A stretch of 64,000 bases of DNA, taken from Amorphus orientalis (GTDB lineage Bacteria; Pseudomonadota; Alphaproteobacteria; Rhizobiales; Amorphaceae). Made by a program: the position numbers and the translations under genes. Shown in pieces: positions 9,647-15,396 of this stretch. The first letter of the stretch is position 1. Every line of letters begins with the position of its first letter. The notes under the pieces are model-generated. The model had not been told where the DNA came from. It was given only the letters and a program-made list of their open reading frames with translations, and did no database searches. The stretch spans positions 834,001 to 898,000 of the forward strand of contig NZ_JAUSUL010000001.1 of the NCBI RefSeq assembly GCF_030814015.1. Direction: 5' to 3'.

Positions 9647-9721
9647 GCGCCCTTCGTCTATCGGTTAGGACGCCAGATTTTCATTCTGGAAAGAGGGGTT
9701 CGACTCCCCTAGGGCGTACCA
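9647..9721 (+). tRNA. tRNA-Glu (anticodon TTC)
   Basis: A full cloverleaf of 75 bases including an encoded CCA (9719-9721). Acceptor stem 9647-9653 pairs with 9711-9717, with one G:T pair at the open end. The anticodon stem CCAGA/TCTGG encloses TTTTCAT with anticodon TTC at 9680-9682. The T stem AGGGG/CCCCT encloses TTCGACT. The tRNA stands alone, with no integrase next to it. Confidence 0.97.
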
Positions 9722-9774
9722 CTTATCTCATTGAATTTTATGGCGAATGCTGCCCGGAACGGGCGCCCGCCCGC

Positions 9775-9802
9775 GCCGATCAGGCGCGAGCGCCTGATCG
9801 GC
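9775..9802. terminator. Strong hairpin between tRNA-Glu and the ridA end
   Basis: A perfect 12-bp stem (GCCGATCAGGCG / CGCCTGATCGGC) with a 4-base loop, placed between converging transcripts. No T-run follows on either strand, so it is not a textbook intrinsic terminator; it may stop or protect RNA ends. Confidence 0.45.
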
Positions 9803-9873
9803 TGGAAACGGCATTCGATCCGTCACCCGGGACATGTCTCTTCCAGACCGGTCCGGTCCGGAGAGGGGCCGCT

Positions 9874-10332
9874 TCAGTCGCCGGCGAGCGCGTTGCAATC
9901 GACCTCGATGGCCGCGTTCTTGGGGATTTCCGGCACGATGATCGTCGAGCGAGTCGGCGGCGATTCCGGGAAGAACTCCGTGAACACGGCGTTCATTTCC
10001 GGAAAGTCATCGATATCCGAAAGCAGGACGATGCACTTGAAGGTCCGGTCGAGCGACGTGCCGGCGGCTTCGAGCATATTCTTCACATGTCCGAACGCCT
10101 GACGGGCCTCAGGCGTGATGCCGCCGGGAACGAGATCCTGTCCACCTTCGGCCGTGCCGAGAACGCCGCCGACATAGACGACGTCCCCCGCGCGAACGGC
10201 GCCGGAATAGGGCAGGCCCTCGACCGCCGTGGAGGGATAGGTCTTGAGTTCCGCCGGCGCGGCGACGGCCGTGCCGAGCCCGATCGCGAGTGCGACGCCG
10301 GCTGCAGAGAGTGCCTGGATCGATCGTTTCAT
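9874..10332 (-). CDS. Exported RidA/YjgF-family enamine/imine deaminase
   Basis: A 152-residue protein: residues 1-24 are a signal peptide (MKRS, hydrophobic core, cleavage near AVA-AP), and the rest is a complete RidA domain. The catalytic Arg of PTRST (R128, counterpart of Arg105 in E. coli RidA) and the Glu of AIEVD (E143) are both present, so imine hydrolysis is chemically plausible. Ordinary RidA is cytoplasmic and clears reactive enamines and imines. An exported form next to an exported amino-acid oxidase suggests it treats the imine product outside the cytoplasm. Its ATG overlaps the stop of the lodB-like gene (ATGA, 10329-10332), so the two are co-translated. Confidence 0.88.
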   Translation of the reverse strand: MKRSIQALSAAGVALAIGLGTAVAAPAELKTYPSTAVEGLPYSGAVRAGDVVYVGGVLGTAEGGQDLVPGGITPEARQAFGHVKNMLEAAGTSLDRTFKCIVLLSDIDDFPEMNAVFTEFFPESPPTRSTIIVPEIPKNAAIEVDCNALAGD

Positions 10333-11492
10333 AAGACTGTCCTTTCGTGCTGTGGGCCCACCTCATCCGGGCTTGCCGCGAGGTGGTGCCGGGAAAGCCC
10401 GGAGCTGCGGCGTCGCCGCCAGAAGGGCCGGTCGTGAAAGCGCGCTTCGCGTGCGTACACGTCCACGCGCCCGCGGCTGAAACGCTCAACGCCCGTGCGG
10501 AGCCGCGCCGCATAGGTTTCCAATTCGGAGAGATCGCCACCAAGGGCGGCCGTGACGGCGTTTGCCCCGTGGAGGCCGGTCCACAGCGCGGTCGTCATTC
10601 CGTGCGCGGAGAGCGGGTCGAAGGCGGCGGCAGCGTCACCCACGGCGAGCCAGTCCGGCCCGGCGCTCTCTTCCAGCCACGATGTGCCGGCCGGAGCGAG
10701 GCGGGGCGGCTCTGTGAGCGCGTAGCCGGCACTGTCGATCCATTGCGAGATGTAGGCCGTCTGCCCGGCCATCCGCCGCCAGAGATCGAGATTGCCGCTG
10801 AGCCCGCGCGGGATCAGATCGGGGTCCGAGTAAAACTGCACGACGAGCCGACGGTCCGCCAGAAGCGCGGCGTACCACCAGCCGTCGTCCACGGCCTCGA
10901 TCAGCGTCGCGGGCGTCGGGTCGATGCCGGTATCGTGCTGCGTCAGGACCGTGCAGGCGGCCACCAGCCGATCGATGCGACGGACCCGGCCGGTGCGGCG
11001 GCCGATCAGCGCGCGACGACCGGTGGCGTCGATCAGGAACCGGGCGGGGATCACGTCTCCGGCGTCGGTGGTCAGGGTCCAGCCGGCCCCCGTGCGCCGA
11101 AAATCGGCGAGGGCCGCTTCGATCCGCTGGATCCCCCGGCGCTTCACCAGATCGAACAAGTCCGCCTCGAACCGGCCTCTGTCGAGGATCAGGCCCAGGC
11201 CCTCGGGCCGTGCGGCGGCGTGCTGCTCGATCAGCGCCGACGTGCCCCATGACGTGAAGCTGGCGGTCGCCGGCCGATGGGAAGGCGCGGTCAGCAGGTG
11301 GCCAGCCTCCAGGTCCGCAAGAAGGGGCAGAGCTGCGGCGGCGAGCGTTTCACCGGGCTTTTCGGCCGGAGGCGGCGGGGCGATCAGCGTGACGGGGATG
11401 CCGCGCCTGCCCAGGGACAGGCATGCGGCACAGCCCGCGATGCCGCCCCCGACGACCGCGACCGCACCGTCCGGTATGTCGCCGGGAGACAT
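10329..11492 (-). CDS. lodB: LodB-like FAD-dependent maturation protein
   Basis: A 387-residue flavoprotein of the tryptophan-halogenase-like group. The N-terminal Rossmann motif is VVGGGIAGCAACLSLG, followed by a GETL segment and an LIDATGRRALIGR region typical of FAD-dependent hydroxylase/halogenase folds, and a GDAAAAFDPLSAHGM motif that binds the flavin. LodB proteins are required to build the cysteine tryptophylquinone cofactor in LodA/GoxA partners, probably by hydroxylating the tryptophan. The gene starts 6 bases after the lodA-like stop. It has no signal peptide, so cofactor formation would happen in the cytoplasm. The C-terminal tail of about 40 residues is basic. Confidence 0.88.
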   Translation of the reverse strand: MSPGDIPDGAVAVVGGGIAGCAACLSLGRRGIPVTLIAPPPPAEKPGETLAAAALPLLADLEAGHLLTAPSHRPATASFTSWGTSALIEQHAAARPEGLGLILDRGRFEADLFDLVKRRGIQRIEAALADFRRTGAGWTLTTDAGDVIPARFLIDATGRRALIGRRTGRVRRIDRLVAACTVLTQHDTGIDPTPATLIEAVDDGWWYAALLADRRLVVQFYSDPDLIPRGLSGNLDLWRRMAGQTAYISQWIDSAGYALTEPPRLAPAGTSWLEESAGPDWLAVGDAAAAFDPLSAHGMTTALWTGLHGANAVTAALGGDLSELETYAARLRTGVERFSRGRVDVYAREARFHDRPFWRRRRSSGLSRHHLAASPDEVGPQHERTVL

Positions 11493-11498
11493 CGGCGG

Positions 11499-13514
11499 CT
11501 ACGGAAGCTGGCCGTCGTCCGGCGTCCAGCCGAAGCGGTTCTCCATGGGCCCCCGTCCGACCTCGACATACATCCTGGCCGGAATGGCGTCCGGACGATC
11601 GGGATCGGTCGGCCCCGGCCGTTCGACGACGAAGCCCATCCTCTGCCAGAGATTGATCATGTTCTGGATGCCGTCCCAGTAGCTGGCGTTGGCGTGGTAG
11701 CCGATCCCCGGCACGCCGCGAGCCCACCACACACGGTTTTCGAAGAACTTCGTGCGTTCCTCCGGGGGCAGGTCGGTCCGCATCAGCTGATTGTAGAACT
11801 CCTCCGGCAGCACATCGACCGGCAGCAGCGCCGGCCACCAGACCGGGACGGGGAAGTCGTCCTGCATGGCGACCCGCTGGCAGCTGAACGCGTCGGGCTG
11901 CCACGGCAGGCCCATCCAGCGGGTCAGGTCGCCGGCCATCTGCGGCCCGATCGGCGGGTTGTCTCCGGTCGTGGCTCGCTGGAAATCGAGGATCCGGCCG
12001 ACATTCTGAACCAGCGAGGACCGATTGCCCCGGCCGATCCGGAAAGGCTCGGCGTCGGCGTTGACGTTCCGCGCATAGAGGGGCGGCAGCCGGAGATAGT
12101 AGGACAGCTCGACGCCCGGATGGAAAGCGCCGCCGGAGCAGGGTTCGAGCGCGGCCCGGGTCAGCGCATGGGGGCGCTGTTCGATCGGCAACTCATCGAG
12201 GCTCTCGACCGCATCCAGGCTCGCGTCGGTGAAATCGTCCTCGAAGTCGCCCTCGGCCCATCGGCGCAGACGCTCATATTGCAGCTTCGGAAACTGGAAC
12301 CACTGCAACGGGCTGCCGTTGTGGTCGATGCCGTCGCCCGGCATCATCGGCATCTTGAGATATTCTTCCTTGAAGGCCGACGGACCCATGTTGTGCGGGT
12401 TCCGGAACTTCTCGAAGACCTCCTGGCGGAAGGCCCGGTTGGCCTCGCTCGGATCGGCGAGCTGGGCGAGGTAGGCGTCGCTGGAGAAGTCGCCGATATC
12501 GAGCCAGCCCTGGCGCATGTTGGCCGCCGCGGACACCCACTCCATCAGCGCCAGCCGATAGAACGTGGGGTAAATGTGCTGGCGGAAGGAGAGCGGCGTT
12601 TCTGGCAGCTCGCTCCAGTTCTGCTCCCAGTTCATGCTCTCGATGACGTCGTAGAGGGTGGAGATCGGAGGGATCTCGGGCGCGAAATCCGGACCGACGC
12701 AGGCAACCCAGGCACCGTCCGCCTCCAGCACTTCGCCGTCGGGAAGCGTGACCGTGGCATCGACCGGGCCGTCGCACCAATCGTCGTACCAGCCGTCATT
12801 GTCGGCGAAGCTGGTGATGGGAGCGCCCTGCGGCGTGCCGGCGACACCGTCGGCCGGAACGACGAGCAGCCGCCCGGCGTCATCGGTGCGCACCTGTCCG
12901 AGGCCGACGTCCATGGCGTCCCAGAAGCGGCCTTTCATGGCGTAGTCCGCAACGTCGCCGTCCCAGTTGACGCGCGCGCCGCTGATTTCGACCGGCCCCG
13001 GATCCACGACAAGCATCTTCTCGCGCTGTGCCGTGCTGGTCAGATACTGGTTGCGCATCCGGGTCGGGATGCCCGGTCCGTGCGCTTCGTTGTCGTGGGG
13101 ATTGGTGAAGCCGTACCAGGCCGCCTTGGTGTTGGCGACGTGGACGCGCCAGTCGATCCGGGCATCGTCGGACGTCAGTTCCCTGACCACGCGCCCCTGG
13201 TCGTCGAAGCCATAGACCCGGAAGCGCTGAACCTGCTTCTTGATGAGGGAATCGCCGTCCTTGTAGCCGCCTTCGGGACGGGACGGGACGCCGGGAATTT
13301 CCGGGGCGTAAAACCACTTCTGGCTTCCGCCGACCCTGCAGATTCCAAGCGCCGGATAGATCCCGACACGCGTGATCTTCGCACCCGCCGGCGCCGCCTC
13401 CGCCGTTGGTGTCGCGGCGACCGCCACTTTCGGCAGGAACGGCAGTCCGGCCGCTGCAAGTCCGCCCATGGCGCCAAGTCCGGCGAGAAAGTCACGTCGT
13501 CTGAAATCGGCCAT
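11499..13514 (-). CDS. lodA: LodA/GoxA-like CTQ quinoprotein amino-acid oxidase with Tat signal
   Basis: A 671-residue protein, close to the usual LodA size. The segment RIDWRVHVANTKAAW (119-133) is a strong LodA-family mark. The cofactor residues can be placed: Cys459 in PCSGGAFHPGVE and Trp538 in GLPWQPDAF, matching the LodA Cys/Trp pair that forms cysteine tryptophylquinone. Such enzymes oxidise a primary amine of an amino acid (lysine epsilon-amine in LodA, glycine in GoxA) and give an aldehyde or oxo acid, ammonia and hydrogen peroxide. The substrate here cannot be read from sequence. The N-terminus RRRDFLAGLGAMGG plus a hydrophobic run ending AVAATP is a twin-arginine signal. It is the first gene of a three-gene unit with lodB and ridA. 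Confidence 0.9.
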   Translation of the reverse strand: MADFRRRDFLAGLGAMGGLAAAGLPFLPKVAVAATPTAEAAPAGAKITRVGIYPALGICRVGGSQKWFYAPEIPGVPSRPEGGYKDGDSLIKKQVQRFRVYGFDDQGRVVRELTSDDARIDWRVHVANTKAAWYGFTNPHDNEAHGPGIPTRMRNQYLTSTAQREKMLVVDPGPVEISGARVNWDGDVADYAMKGRFWDAMDVGLGQVRTDDAGRLLVVPADGVAGTPQGAPITSFADNDGWYDDWCDGPVDATVTLPDGEVLEADGAWVACVGPDFAPEIPPISTLYDVIESMNWEQNWSELPETPLSFRQHIYPTFYRLALMEWVSAAANMRQGWLDIGDFSSDAYLAQLADPSEANRAFRQEVFEKFRNPHNMGPSAFKEEYLKMPMMPGDGIDHNGSPLQWFQFPKLQYERLRRWAEGDFEDDFTDASLDAVESLDELPIEQRPHALTRAALEPCSGGAFHPGVELSYYLRLPPLYARNVNADAEPFRIGRGNRSSLVQNVGRILDFQRATTGDNPPIGPQMAGDLTRWMGLPWQPDAFSCQRVAMQDDFPVPVWWPALLPVDVLPEEFYNQLMRTDLPPEERTKFFENRVWWARGVPGIGYHANASYWDGIQNMINLWQRMGFVVERPGPTDPDRPDAIPARMYVEVGRGPMENRFGWTPDDGQLP

Positions 13515-13881
13515 GCTGGTCTTCCCTCACCGCTCCACTTCCGACGCAGGCCGGACGTCCGGAGTGTTCCTATTCTTTTAGCAGGCCGGCGTATTTCTGG
13601 TCAAATTACTATTTATTAATGAAATAATTTAGTAGTAAATAATATTTATTTTAATAGCTATGTCTATATGAATATAATCTAGAATAAATTCTAAGTAATA
13701 AAGTGTTCTTGCGCTCCTTTTCCGGAGCAAGGAGAGCGGACGGGACGATGAGGACCGGCTCACGATGCTGAGCCTGGGCGCAATTCTTGTCGCCCGGATG
13801 TCTCCGTCCGAGCAGAAACGGTCTTGGCGGAGCGATCGGCGCGCCCTTTGACGGGGGTGCCGACCGCTCCGGTCGTCCTTC
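13515..13881. other. Intergenic region with a 15% GC island
   Basis: No gene is seen in these 367 bases. Positions 13601-13710 hold only 17 G or C in 110 bases by my hand count, against a GC-rich background. On the minus strand, TTGACC (13604-13599), an 18-base spacer and TAAAAG (13580-13575) form a candidate promoter for lodA, with the AT island directly upstream of the -35 box, where an UP element or a silencer site would lie. Confidence 0.5.
13829..13870 (-). terminator. Hairpin just after the semialdehyde dehydrogenase stop
   Basis: GGAGCGATCGGC pairs with GCCGACCGCTCC at 11 of 12 positions around an 18-base loop, beginning 12 bases after the operon's last stop codon. No U-run follows, so it is a terminator or RNA 3' end candidate only. 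Confidence 0.35.
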
Positions 13882-15396
13882 TCACCTGAGGTCTTCGGGG
13901 AGGAGATCCTCAGGGATGTTCTGGTAGCAGACGGGCCGGAGGAAGCGGCGGATGGCGAGCGTGCCGACCGACGTGGTCGACGGGTTGGTGCTGGCCGGGT
14001 AGGGGCCGCCGTGCATCATCGCGTCGGCGACCTCGACACCGGTCGGGAAGCCGTTGGCCAGGATGCGGCCGGCCTTGCGCTCCAGGATCGGCATCAGCTG
14101 GCCGGCCGCGCCGTGATCGCCCGCGTCCATGTGCAGCGTGCAGGTGAGCTGGCCGTCCATCTGACCGGCAATCTCCACCATCTGGTCGACGCCTGTCACC
14201 CGGACCAGCAGACCGAACGGGCCGAACACCTCCTCGCCGAGCTCCGGATTGGCCAGGAAGGTCTGACCGTCGGTGACGTAGAAGTCCGGCGCGGCGGCAC
14301 GGCCGTCGGCGTTTGAACGCAGCTTCTCGCGCAGGGTGTTCACGCCTGAGAGCTTGTCGCGGCCGGTCCGGTAGGCCTCCGCGATGCCCTCCGACAGCAT
14401 GGTCTGGGGGCCGGTCTCACTGAGCGCCCCGGCGGCCGCCGTCTCGAAGGCCTCGGCCGCGTCCCCGTCCTCGATCAGCACGATGCCGGGATTGGTGCAG
14501 AACTGGCCGACGCCCATCGAGAGCGATCCCGCCCAGGCGGTGCCGATCTCGCTAGCCCGCGCCCGGGCCGCGTCCGGCAGCACGAACACCGGGTTGACCG
14601 AGCCGAGCTCGCCGAAGAACGGGATCGGCGTCTCGCGCCGGTTGGCCAGGTCGAACAGGGCCCGGCCGCCGCGCAGCGAACCGGTGAAGCCGATGGCAGT
14701 GATCAGCGGATGCTGGACCAGGGCGGTGCCGGCCTCGTTGGTGTTCGACTGGATCAGCGAGAACACGCCCGGATGCTGGCCGGTCGATTTGATCGCCGCG
14801 AGGATCGCCTCCGCCACGATCTCGCCGGTTCCCGGATGGCTCGGATGGCCCTTGACCACCACCGGGCAGCCGGCCGCGAGCGCCGAGGCGGTGTCGCCGC
14901 CGGCGGTGGAAAAGGCGAGCGGAAAGTTGGAGGCGCCGAACACGCCGACGGGCCCCAGCGGGCGCTGGATCAGGCGCAGGTCCGGACGCGGGCCGGGCTG
15001 GCGGTCCGGCTGGGCCGCGTCGTGGCGCCGGTCGAGATAGTCGCCGGCGCGGATGTGGCCCGCGAACAGGCGGAGCTGGCCGGTGGTGCGGCCGCGCTCG
15101 CCCTGGAGCCGGGCCTCGGGCAGTCCGGTCTCGCGGCTGCCGATGTCGGTGATCTGGTCGGCGCGCGCCTCGATCTCGTCGGCGATCGCCTCCAGGAAGG
15201 CGGCGCGGGCCTCGCGGCTCGACGCGCCATAGGTCCAGAACGCCTCCTCGGCGGCGGTCACCGCGGCGTCAACGTCCGCCGCCGTGCCCAGTGCGAACTC
15301 CGACGCCGGACCCGTGGCCGGCTTTGAGGAAAACCTGCCGCTCCCGGAACGCCAGTCACCGGCGATCAGATGGTTGCCGTGCGGGGTGAAGCTCAT
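13882..15396 (-). CDS. 2,5-dioxovalerate (2-oxoglutarate semialdehyde) dehydrogenase
   Basis: A 504-residue NAD(P)-dependent aldehyde dehydrogenase. Catalytic Cys300 lies in GVGQFCTNPG and the general-base Glu263 in FGELGSVNP; GPVGVFGASNFP (148-159) and the FTGS segment bind the nucleotide. The C-terminal HGGPYPASTNPSTTSVG is typical of the 2-oxoglutarate-semialdehyde branch. It would turn 2-oxoglutarate semialdehyde into 2-oxoglutarate, the last step of non-phosphorylative pentose, hexarate or hydroxyproline routes. The ATG at 15396 is preceded by a perfect AAGGAG; the open frame beyond it is not used. It is the last gene of the TRAP/dehydratase operon, which supports a sugar-acid role. Confidence 0.9.
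   Translation of the reverse strand: MSFTPHGNHLIAGDWRSGSGRFSSKPATGPASEFALGTAADVDAAVTAAEEAFWTYGASSREARAAFLEAIADEIEARADQITDIGSRETGLPEARLQGERGRTTGQLRLFAGHIRAGDYLDRRHDAAQPDRQPGPRPDLRLIQRPLGPVGVFGASNFPLAFSTAGGDTASALAAGCPVVVKGHPSHPGTGEIVAEAILAAIKSTGQHPGVFSLIQSNTNEAGTALVQHPLITAIGFTGSLRGGRALFDLANRRETPIPFFGELGSVNPVFVLPDAARARASEIGTAWAGSLSMGVGQFCTNPGIVLIEDGDAAEAFETAAAGALSETGPQTMLSEGIAEAYRTGRDKLSGVNTLREKLRSNADGRAAAPDFYVTDGQTFLANPELGEEVFGPFGLLVRVTGVDQMVEIAGQMDGQLTCTLHMDAGDHGAAGQLMPILERKAGRILANGFPTGVEVADAMMHGGPYPASTNPSTTSVGTLAIRRFLRPVCYQNIPEDLLPEDLR

What the first reader, a model, noticed from the sequence alone, without database searches (positions are those of the whole stretch)
9874..13710. Export-ready amino-acid oxidase unit: Tat-LodA, LodB and a RidA with its own signal peptide
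Seen: three same-strand genes with a 6-base gap and an ATGA overlap. The first is a LodA/GoxA-family protein with the CTQ pair Cys459/Trp538 and an N-terminal RRRDFLAGLG Tat signal; the second is LodB-like without a signal; the third is RidA with a Sec-type signal and intact Arg128/Glu143. Known: LodB-type flavoproteins make the quinone cofactor in LodA, and Tat exports folded proteins. Inference: the oxidase is matured in the cytoplasm, exported folded, and its imine or enamine product is hydrolysed outside by the dedicated RidA. I do not know of a described LodA-LodB-RidA unit.
Basis: partly seen in the sequence, partly recalled or inferred. Interest (0 to 1): 0.85.

Follow-up and report, generated by a model that had tools for sequence, protein, structure and literature searches.

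The report
Exported glycine oxidase with partner RidA
Three linked genes encode a known kind of exported glycine-oxidising enzyme, its maturation partner, and an unusual exported RidA-like protein that is inherited with them in one branch of the family, which suggests a clean-up enzyme working outside the cell interior.

Summary
In detail: three minus-strand genes, a 6-nt gap, an ATGA overlap, a twin-arginine signal, intact CTQ residues, and a RidA-like protein with its own signal. The names need correcting: it is GoxA/GoxB (CTQ glycine oxidase and maturase), not LodA/LodB. Tat-borne GoxA with its maturase is already published; the third gene was not described in the papers my searches found. 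A Rid gene directly follows goxB in 9 of 23 GoxA-group loci and in 0 of 11 other LodA-like loci. The simplest reading of the tree is one gain in a fully supported GoxA clade, one loss, and a separate gain of a different signal-bearing Rid in Methylobacterium. The clade's Rids form their own clade whose distances track GoxA's (r 0.87), although Lamprobacter's position conflicts between the two trees. No gox-type Rid was found away from gox in 372 and 307 sampled genomes. So it looks like a real, co-inherited unit. That the Rid hydrolyses GoxA's imine is plausible but unproven: quinone amine oxidases normally release the aldehyde and keep the nitrogen. Exported Rids also occur without gox.

The parts
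11499..13514 (-). goxA: CTQ-dependent glycine oxidase by family, 671 aa, Tat signal at N-terminus
   Evidence: NF038173 1173 bits over residues 5-671 (cut-off 750), LodA_N and LodA_C Pfam domains; 80% identical to a Devosia homologue
13416..13514 (-). twin-arginine signal, residues 1-33 (RRRDFL at residue 5)
   Evidence: TIGR01409 20.8 bits, cut-off 16.7; RR motif in 22 of 23 GoxA-group proteins; TatC gene in the genome
12138..12140 (-). codon of Cys459 (CTQ cysteine)
   Evidence: Cys in 31 of 34 aligned LodA-like proteins, Leu in 3
11901..11903 (-). codon of Trp538 (CTQ tryptophan)
   Evidence: invariant in 34 of 34
11892..11894 (-). codon of Asp541, counterpart of Asp678 of Pseudoalteromonas GoxA
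   Evidence: invariant in 34 of 34; alignment to 6byw
10329..11492 (-). goxB: FAD-binding maturase of GoxA by family, 387 aa, no export signal seen
   Evidence: NF038174 462 bits, cut-off 400
9874..10332 (-). ridA-like gene, 152 aa, Rid-family protein with export signal
   Evidence: PF01042 83.5 bits, cut-off 27.3; TIGR00004 90.3, below its cut-off 106.25; clade 100/98 of 8 goxB-linked Rids including this one
10261..10332 (-). Sec-type signal peptide of the Rid protein, residues 1-24 (A-V-A|A)
   Evidence: sequence; hydropathy contrast with 9 paralogues; hydrophobic N-terminus, by eye, in all 8 clade members
9949..9951 (-). codon of Arg128, counterpart of the catalytic Rid arginine
   Evidence: invariant in 8 of 8; aligned to solved Rids
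9904..9906 (-). codon of Glu143, counterpart of the conserved Rid glutamate
   Evidence: invariant in 8 of 8
13639..13666 (-). promoter-like TAGACA-16-TATTAT in an AT-rich stretch upstream of goxA
   Evidence: 2 sites in the region scanned, one on each strand here; mean 0.5 in shuffles; sequence; consensus match only
9775..9802 (.). perfect 13-nt inverted repeat between ridA and the converging tRNA-Glu; role unknown
   Evidence: no terminator-like site found in 9700-13950

Best explanation
An extracytoplasmic glycine-oxidase unit. GoxB, a flavoprotein without export signal, completes the cysteine-tryptophylquinone cofactor of GoxA in the cytoplasm; folded GoxA leaves by the Tat route and oxidises glycine outside the cytoplasm to glyoxylate, ammonia and hydrogen peroxide. 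The third protein is a dedicated Rid-family deaminase sent out separately by Sec to the same compartment, where it hydrolyses reactive C=N species arising from GoxA turnover, most likely iminoglyoxylate that escapes GoxA or re-forms from glyoxylate and ammonia. Shown here: gene identity, residues, signal motifs, gene layout, co-inheritance. Inferred from the families: cofactor, substrate, Tat and Sec routes. Inferred only: the Rid substrate and its benefit.
For: GoxA and GoxB over NCBIfam equivalog cut-offs. CTQ Cys/Trp and Asp541 present, and residues aligned with F316, H583, Y766 and H767 of the solved GoxA kept in the window (the active-site role of those four is recalled). RR motif in 22 of 23 GoxA-group proteins. 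A Rid gene next to goxB in 9 of 23 GoxA-group loci, 0 of 11 other LodA-like loci. Tree: three changes of the label, as few in 0 of 500 shuffles; eight of the nine lie in one 100/100 clade of nine. The eight clade Rids are one clade, 100/98; GoxA and Rid distances correlate r 0.87, reached by 9 of 20,000 permutations, beside GoxA-GoxB 0.90 and GoxB-Rid 0.76. Gox-type Rid found only with goxA: 252 bits in the own genome against at most 136 in the other 371 of 372 class genomes, and only the own genome passes E 1e-35 among 307 order genomes; none in trans in 14 gox genomes without adjacent ridA, best 81 bits against 252 and 283 in the two ridA-plus genomes searched with them. Second recruitment (L071): a distant Rid, starting 17 nt after goxB ends, also with a signal-like start and with Arg and Glu at the matching places by eye. 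Rid proteins hydrolyse amino-acid-oxidase imines in vitro (PMC4433059 and PMC5619798, abstracts and passages).
Against: Copper/TPQ quinone oxidases release aldehyde, not imine (PMC3382800 passages). 14 of 23 GoxA-group loci lack ridA, among them a close Devosia relative (L008), and so does the characterised Marinomonas unit, so GoxA can do without it. The Lamprobacter GoxA and Rid take different, well-supported places in their trees (100/99, 99/94), so co-inheritance was not perfect. The Rid scores under the TIGR00004 cut-off. Rids with export-like N-termini also exist without gox. No test of a Rid on a glycine-derived imine was in the passages read.
Confidence: 0.5

Rival explanations
1. The exported Rid belongs to the unit but does not act on GoxA's product: it protects the envelope from peroxide-linked damage, for example as a holdase chaperone, or clears other imines made where GoxA works.
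For: 10 of 29 other Rid loci examined have signal- or lipoprotein-like N-termini in genomes without a GoxA match, and their neighbours share no theme by eye. Marinomonas GoxA makes peroxide in the culture supernatant (PMC3948610 passages). The chemistry of quinone oxidases does not demand an imine hydrolase (PMC3382800 passages). Chaperone activity of RidA is recalled, not checked here.
Against: The gox-linked Rid clade is separate (100/98) and was not found without gox; Arg128 and Glu143 are invariant in 8 of 8, as expected of a deaminase.
Confidence: 0.3
2. The Rid binds GoxA and helps its assembly, stability or product release outside the cytoplasm rather than acting as a free enzyme.
For: Close co-inheritance; seven GoxA positions are specific to the ridA clade, which could mark an interface.
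Against: Clade-specific residues are expected in any clade, and the Devosia MAG GoxA keeps all seven without the Rid (by construction of the count); a second, distant Rid was recruited in Methylobacterium, which favours shared chemistry over a fitted surface.
Confidence: 0.1
3. The linkage is a passenger: ridA landed behind goxB once and is carried along by transfer of the segment.
For: One main gain; sporadic distribution; transfer is evident (Lamprobacter, Martelella plasmids) and one loss is seen; the Lamprobacter conflict shows the genes can part.
Against: Catalytic residues and signal are kept down to 51% mature-Rid identity between loci; a second gain with another signal-bearing Rid; overlapping stop and start in the window.
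Confidence: 0.1

Closest known systems
goxAB operon of Marinomonas mediterranea (CTQ glycine oxidase and maturase)
   Same: Same protein families over equivalog cut-offs, same order, Tat signal on GoxA (PMC3948610 section 22)
   Different: That unit has two genes with surrounding genes in opposite orientation (PMC3948610 section 22); here a third gene, for a Rid with export signal, overlaps goxB
Group II (IIA/IIB) LodA-like proteins of Campillo-Brocal et al. 2015
   Same: Mostly alphaproteobacterial, twin-arginine motif in all of IIA/IIB, lodB-like neighbour (PMC4417212 sections 6 and 10)
   Different: No Rid neighbour is mentioned in the two sections read; in the whole text 'rida' occurs 0 times and 'endoribonuclease' and 'translation initiation inhibitor' 0 times
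Rid genes clustered with FAD amine oxidases (Niehaus et al. 2015)
   Same: Rid beside an amine oxidase, imine hydrolysis proposed and shown in vitro (PMC4433059, section 6 and passages)
   Different: Here the oxidase is a quinoprotein, not FAD, and both oxidase and Rid carry export signals; 'periplasm' and 'signal peptide' occur 0 times in that paper
lodAB of Marinomonas mediterranea (lysine epsilon-oxidase)
   Same: Same superfamily, CTQ chemistry, paired flavoprotein
   Different: NF038172 score 181 against a cut-off of 600; NF038171 185 against 400

Membership tests
GoxA, CTQ glycine oxidase (NF038173) | Score over curated cut-off, full length | tested here: met
   1173.1 bits against 750, residues 5-671 on profile 1-668
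GoxA, CTQ glycine oxidase (NF038173) | CTQ-forming Cys and Trp | tested here: met
   C459 and W538 in the family alignment
GoxA, CTQ glycine oxidase (NF038173) | Twin-arginine signal (group IIA/IIB) | tested here: met
   TIGR01409 20.8, cut-off 16.7; RR motif in 22 of 23 GoxA-group rows
GoxA, CTQ glycine oxidase (NF038173) | Glycine oxidase activity | not testable with these tools
   needs an enzyme assay
LodA, lysine 6-oxidase (NF038172) | Score over curated cut-off | tested here: not met
   181.2 against 600
LodB maturase (NF038171) | Score over curated cut-off | tested here: not met
   185.1 against 400
GoxB maturase (NF038174) | Score over curated cut-off, next to goxA | tested here: met
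   461.8 against 400; 6 nt downstream
Rid superfamily (PF01042) | Score over curated cut-off | tested here: met
   83.5 against 27.3
Rid family detoxifying hydrolase (TIGR00004) | Score over curated cut-off | tested here: not met
   90.3 against 106.25; so called RidA-like, not filed as RidA proper
Imine-hydrolysing Rid (RidA, Rid1-3) | Catalytic arginine | tested here: met
   R128 aligned with solved Rids and invariant in 8 of 8
Imine-hydrolysing Rid (RidA, Rid1-3) | Imine deaminase activity | not testable with these tools
   needs a semicarbazide competition assay
Rid with FAD amine oxidase cluster | Neighbouring oxidase is FAD-dependent | tested here: not met
   neighbouring oxidase is of the LodA/GoxA family, CTQ type

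The most novel reading that the evidence does not exclude
This CTQ glycine oxidase really releases an imine (iminoglyoxylate) outside the cytoplasm, departing from the aldehyde-releasing scheme of quinone amine oxidases, and at least two lineages have independently recruited an exported Rid deaminase to deal with it: a metabolite-damage repair system working in the periplasm or outside.
Probability: 0.3. Interest if true: 0.75.

Novelty: new variant of a known kind. Interest (0 to 1): 0.5.

Why it matters
Rid proteins are known mainly as guards against reactive imines inside the cell. A Rid with an export signal that is inherited with one exported oxidase offers a natural pairing in which the substrate can be named and tested. 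It also bears on a mechanistic point: if the Rid changes what GoxA delivers, the quinone enzyme releases an imine and not only glyoxylate. The wider set of signal-bearing Rids without gox suggests that imine chemistry outside the cytoplasm may be more common than assumed.

Tried and rejected
LodA/LodB naming: rejected on NCBIfam scores. Export-specific disulfide in the Rid: C100 and C146 are invariant in the 8 gox-linked Rids, but relatives without a signal-like start (L073-L075, L096) have cysteines at similar places, so it is not a mark of export. AlphaFold model of the Rid with a 7-row alignment: mean pLDDT 39.8, not used. Neighbours of 10 signal-bearing Rids without gox: no shared partner seen by eye in ORF listings; they were not run through Pfam. 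Other window genes: aldehyde dehydrogenase, RraA-like, arabinonate dehydratase and TRAP genes upstream look like sugar-acid catabolism and were not taken as part of the unit. Two papers on GoxA kinetics were not held, so persistence of the product Schiff base in GoxA is recalled and not relied on. Literature: the listings named no paper on goxAB with ridA. These are listings of at most 20-40 papers per search (one search listed 20 of 3,046), and the library lacks most subscription journals. The plasmid records' own annotation already shows goxA, goxB and 'RidA family protein' side by side in Martelella, so the arrangement is in databases.

Rows left out before counting: L044 and L065 (taken as copies of L004 and L011 from equal contig lengths and equal hits), L058 (near-copy of L057, with goxA in two overlapping frames), and short duplicate loci of the same genes. 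The 11 LodA-like controls came; 19 of the 22 plasmid records were not examined. L009, L010, L012 and L071 count as GoxA group by their place in the tree; they were not scored against NF038173. The L010 contig ends 1,275 nt after its goxB. In some searches only the 10 and 12 best first-look candidates of each genome were scored.

Full report
What is there. The first is a LodA/GoxA-family oxidase with LodA_N and LodA_C domains. NCBIfam assigns it clearly to GoxA (1173 bits, cut-off 750) rather than LodA (181, cut-off 600), and the second to GoxB (462, cut-off 400) rather than LodB (185, cut-off 400). The unit is therefore gox, with glycine as the expected substrate by family; no activity was tested.

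Residues and signals. C459, W538 and D541 align across 34 LodA-like proteins; the Trp and Asp are invariant and the Cys is present in 31. D541 matches D678 of the solved Pseudoalteromonas enzyme, a position that is changed in two of the PDB chains shown. F236, H465, Y606 and H607 line up with F316, H583, Y766 and H767 there (counted on the alignment; their active-site role is recalled). Y606 is kept in 19 of 23 GoxA-group rows, the other three in 23 of 23. The twin-arginine signal passes TIGR01409, 22 of 23 GoxA-group proteins carry an RR motif, and the genome has TatC. This matches published work: group IIA/IIB GoxA-like proteins all show the motif and 13 of 15 are alphaproteobacterial (PMC4417212 section 10, read), and Marinomonas GoxA activity is found in culture supernatants and the protein has a twin-arginine signal (PMC3948610, section 22 read, other passages).

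The third gene. It is a Rid-superfamily member (PF01042 83.5 bits, cut-off 27.3) but falls under the TIGR00004 cut-off (90.3 against 106.25), so 'RidA-like' is the safer label. R128 and E143 align with the conserved residues of solved Rids. It has a lysine/arginine start, a hydrophobic core and an AVA|A site. Of ten Rid-family hits in this 4.7-Mb genome only this one shows such a segment. With ten Rid genes in a genome of that size, a Rid beside any given gene is a rare event by chance (inference).

Is the linkage real? I assembled 23 distinct GoxA-group loci: 11 from a scan of genome contigs, 10 more from whole-genome searches (the window's own is one of these) and 2 from plasmid records. Four of them (L009, L010, L012, L071) belong by tree position only. 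A Rid gene directly follows goxB in 9: the window, Devosia equisanguinis, Lamprobacter modestohalophilus, Roseibium hamelinense, BAL199, Thalassobaculum litoreum, Roseibium sediminicola, a Martelella plasmid, and Methylobacterium bullatum. It follows 0 of 11 LodA-like loci outside the GoxA group. All nine Rids have a hydrophobic N-terminal segment by eye. In the GoxA tree, eight of the nine fall in one 100/100 clade of nine rows, the exception being a Devosia MAG (L008) whose locus runs 4.9 kb past goxB; Methylobacterium lies far away. The label needs three changes, as few in 0 of 500 shuffles. The count alone cannot tell gain from loss; one gain, one loss and one separate gain is the simplest reading, helped by the Rid tree. 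There the eight clade Rids, the window's among them, form a 100/98 clade, while the Methylobacterium Rid is distant and long-branched.

Co-inheritance, with one conflict. Pairwise distances of GoxA and Rid in the eight loci correlate at 0.87 (9 of 20,000 permutations as high), beside 0.90 for GoxA-GoxB and 0.76 for GoxB-Rid. The pairings BAL199-Thalassobaculum, window-Devosia and Roseibium-Martelella agree between the trees. Lamprobacter does not: its GoxA sits with Roseibium and Martelella (100/99), its Rid outside a group of window, Devosia, Roseibium and Martelella (99/94). So the unit mostly travels together but its genes have parted or recombined at least once, or one short tree is wrong.

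Does this Rid occur alone? A profile of the gox-linked Rids against 372 class genomes gave 252 bits in the own genome and at most 136 elsewhere; against 307 order genomes only the own genome passed E 1e-35. In 14 genomes with goxAB but no adjacent ridA no gox-type Rid was found in trans (best 81 bits; the two ridA-plus genomes in the same search gave 252 and 283). Only the best first-look candidates of each genome were scored, the two samples may overlap, and few of their genomes carry goxA, so these counts test for orphans rather than for co-occurrence.

A wider class of exported Rids. Of 29 other Rid loci (L073-L101), ten have signal- or lipoprotein-like N-termini by eye, in genomes that gave no GoxA match. 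In the tree they sit, together with four relatives without such a start, in the sister group (95/85) of the gox-linked clade. Their neighbours show no shared theme by eye. So export of a Rid is not unique to this unit, which tempers the claim.

How it probably works. GoxB finishes the quinone cofactor on GoxA (PMC7876137 passages describe LodB and GoxB as flavoproteins required for CTQ formation; that this happens in the cytoplasm is inferred from the missing signal on GoxB), Tat exports the folded enzyme, and glycine is oxidised outside to glyoxylate, ammonia and peroxide. The exported Rid most likely deals with a reactive C=N compound from that reaction. Against a simple version of this stands the chemistry of quinone amine oxidases: in copper/TPQ enzymes the product Schiff base is hydrolysed to release the aldehyde, and ammonium leaves later (PMC3382800 passages). 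FAD glycine oxidases, by contrast, are described as making glycine imine (PMC12605379 passages). For GoxA a free imine is therefore not given. It could arise if the cofactor is re-oxidised while the product is still bound, or if glyoxylate condenses with ammonia (inference). Rid proteins do hydrolyse oxidase-derived imines in vitro (PMC4433059 abstract and passages; PMC5619798 abstract and passages), but I saw no test on a glycine imine in what I read. I put about 0.85 on a real functional unit and 0.5 on the full explanation.

Compared with what is known. Tat-GoxA with GoxB is known. Rid genes beside FAD amine oxidases are known (PMC4433059 section 6, read). The combination of a CTQ oxidase with a dedicated exported Rid was not seen in the listings of the searches run, though public annotation shows the three genes side by side in Martelella. 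The described Marinomonas unit has two genes, flanked by genes in the opposite orientation (PMC3948610 section 22). I rate it a new variant of a known kind, interest 0.5.

Noticed in passing
L009:5971-8007, L010:948-3023, L042:5036-7138: Three GoxA-group proteins, each followed by a goxB-like gene, have Leu where the CTQ cysteine should be while keeping the Trp and Asp. PMC4417212 (abstract) reports the Cys in all LodA-like proteins it studied; the solved Pseudoalteromonas chain also shows Leu in that column, with a Cys 8 residues upstream.
   Followed up: partly
L077-L082, L085-L087, L099: Signal-bearing or lipoprotein-like Rid proteins in alphaproteobacterial genomes without a GoxA match, forming with four relatives lacking such a start the sister group of the gox-linked Rids; no shared neighbour by eye.
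   Followed up: partly
L003 (Lamprobacter modestohalophilus): GoxA and Rid of this gammaproteobacterial locus take conflicting, well-supported places in their trees, as if the two genes had different recent histories.
   Followed up: no
window 13590-13710: A strikingly AT-rich stretch of about 110 bases upstream of goxA in an otherwise GC-rich region, holding promoter-like sites on both strands.
   Followed up: partly
window 9647-9802: tRNA-Glu (ttc, 9647-9721) converging on the ridA end, with a perfect 13-nt inverted repeat at 9775-9802 between them; the sporadic gox segment sits beside a tRNA gene.
   Followed up: no
L058:8001-10006: goxA of the Martelella sp. NC18 plasmid is annotated in two overlapping pieces, unlike the single gene in the NC20 plasmid.
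   Followed up: no
L071:8938-9414: Rid-family gene with signal-like start beginning 17 nt after goxB ends in Methylobacterium bullatum (PF01042 50 bits), in a record without gene annotation here; a second, distant recruitment.
   Followed up: yes
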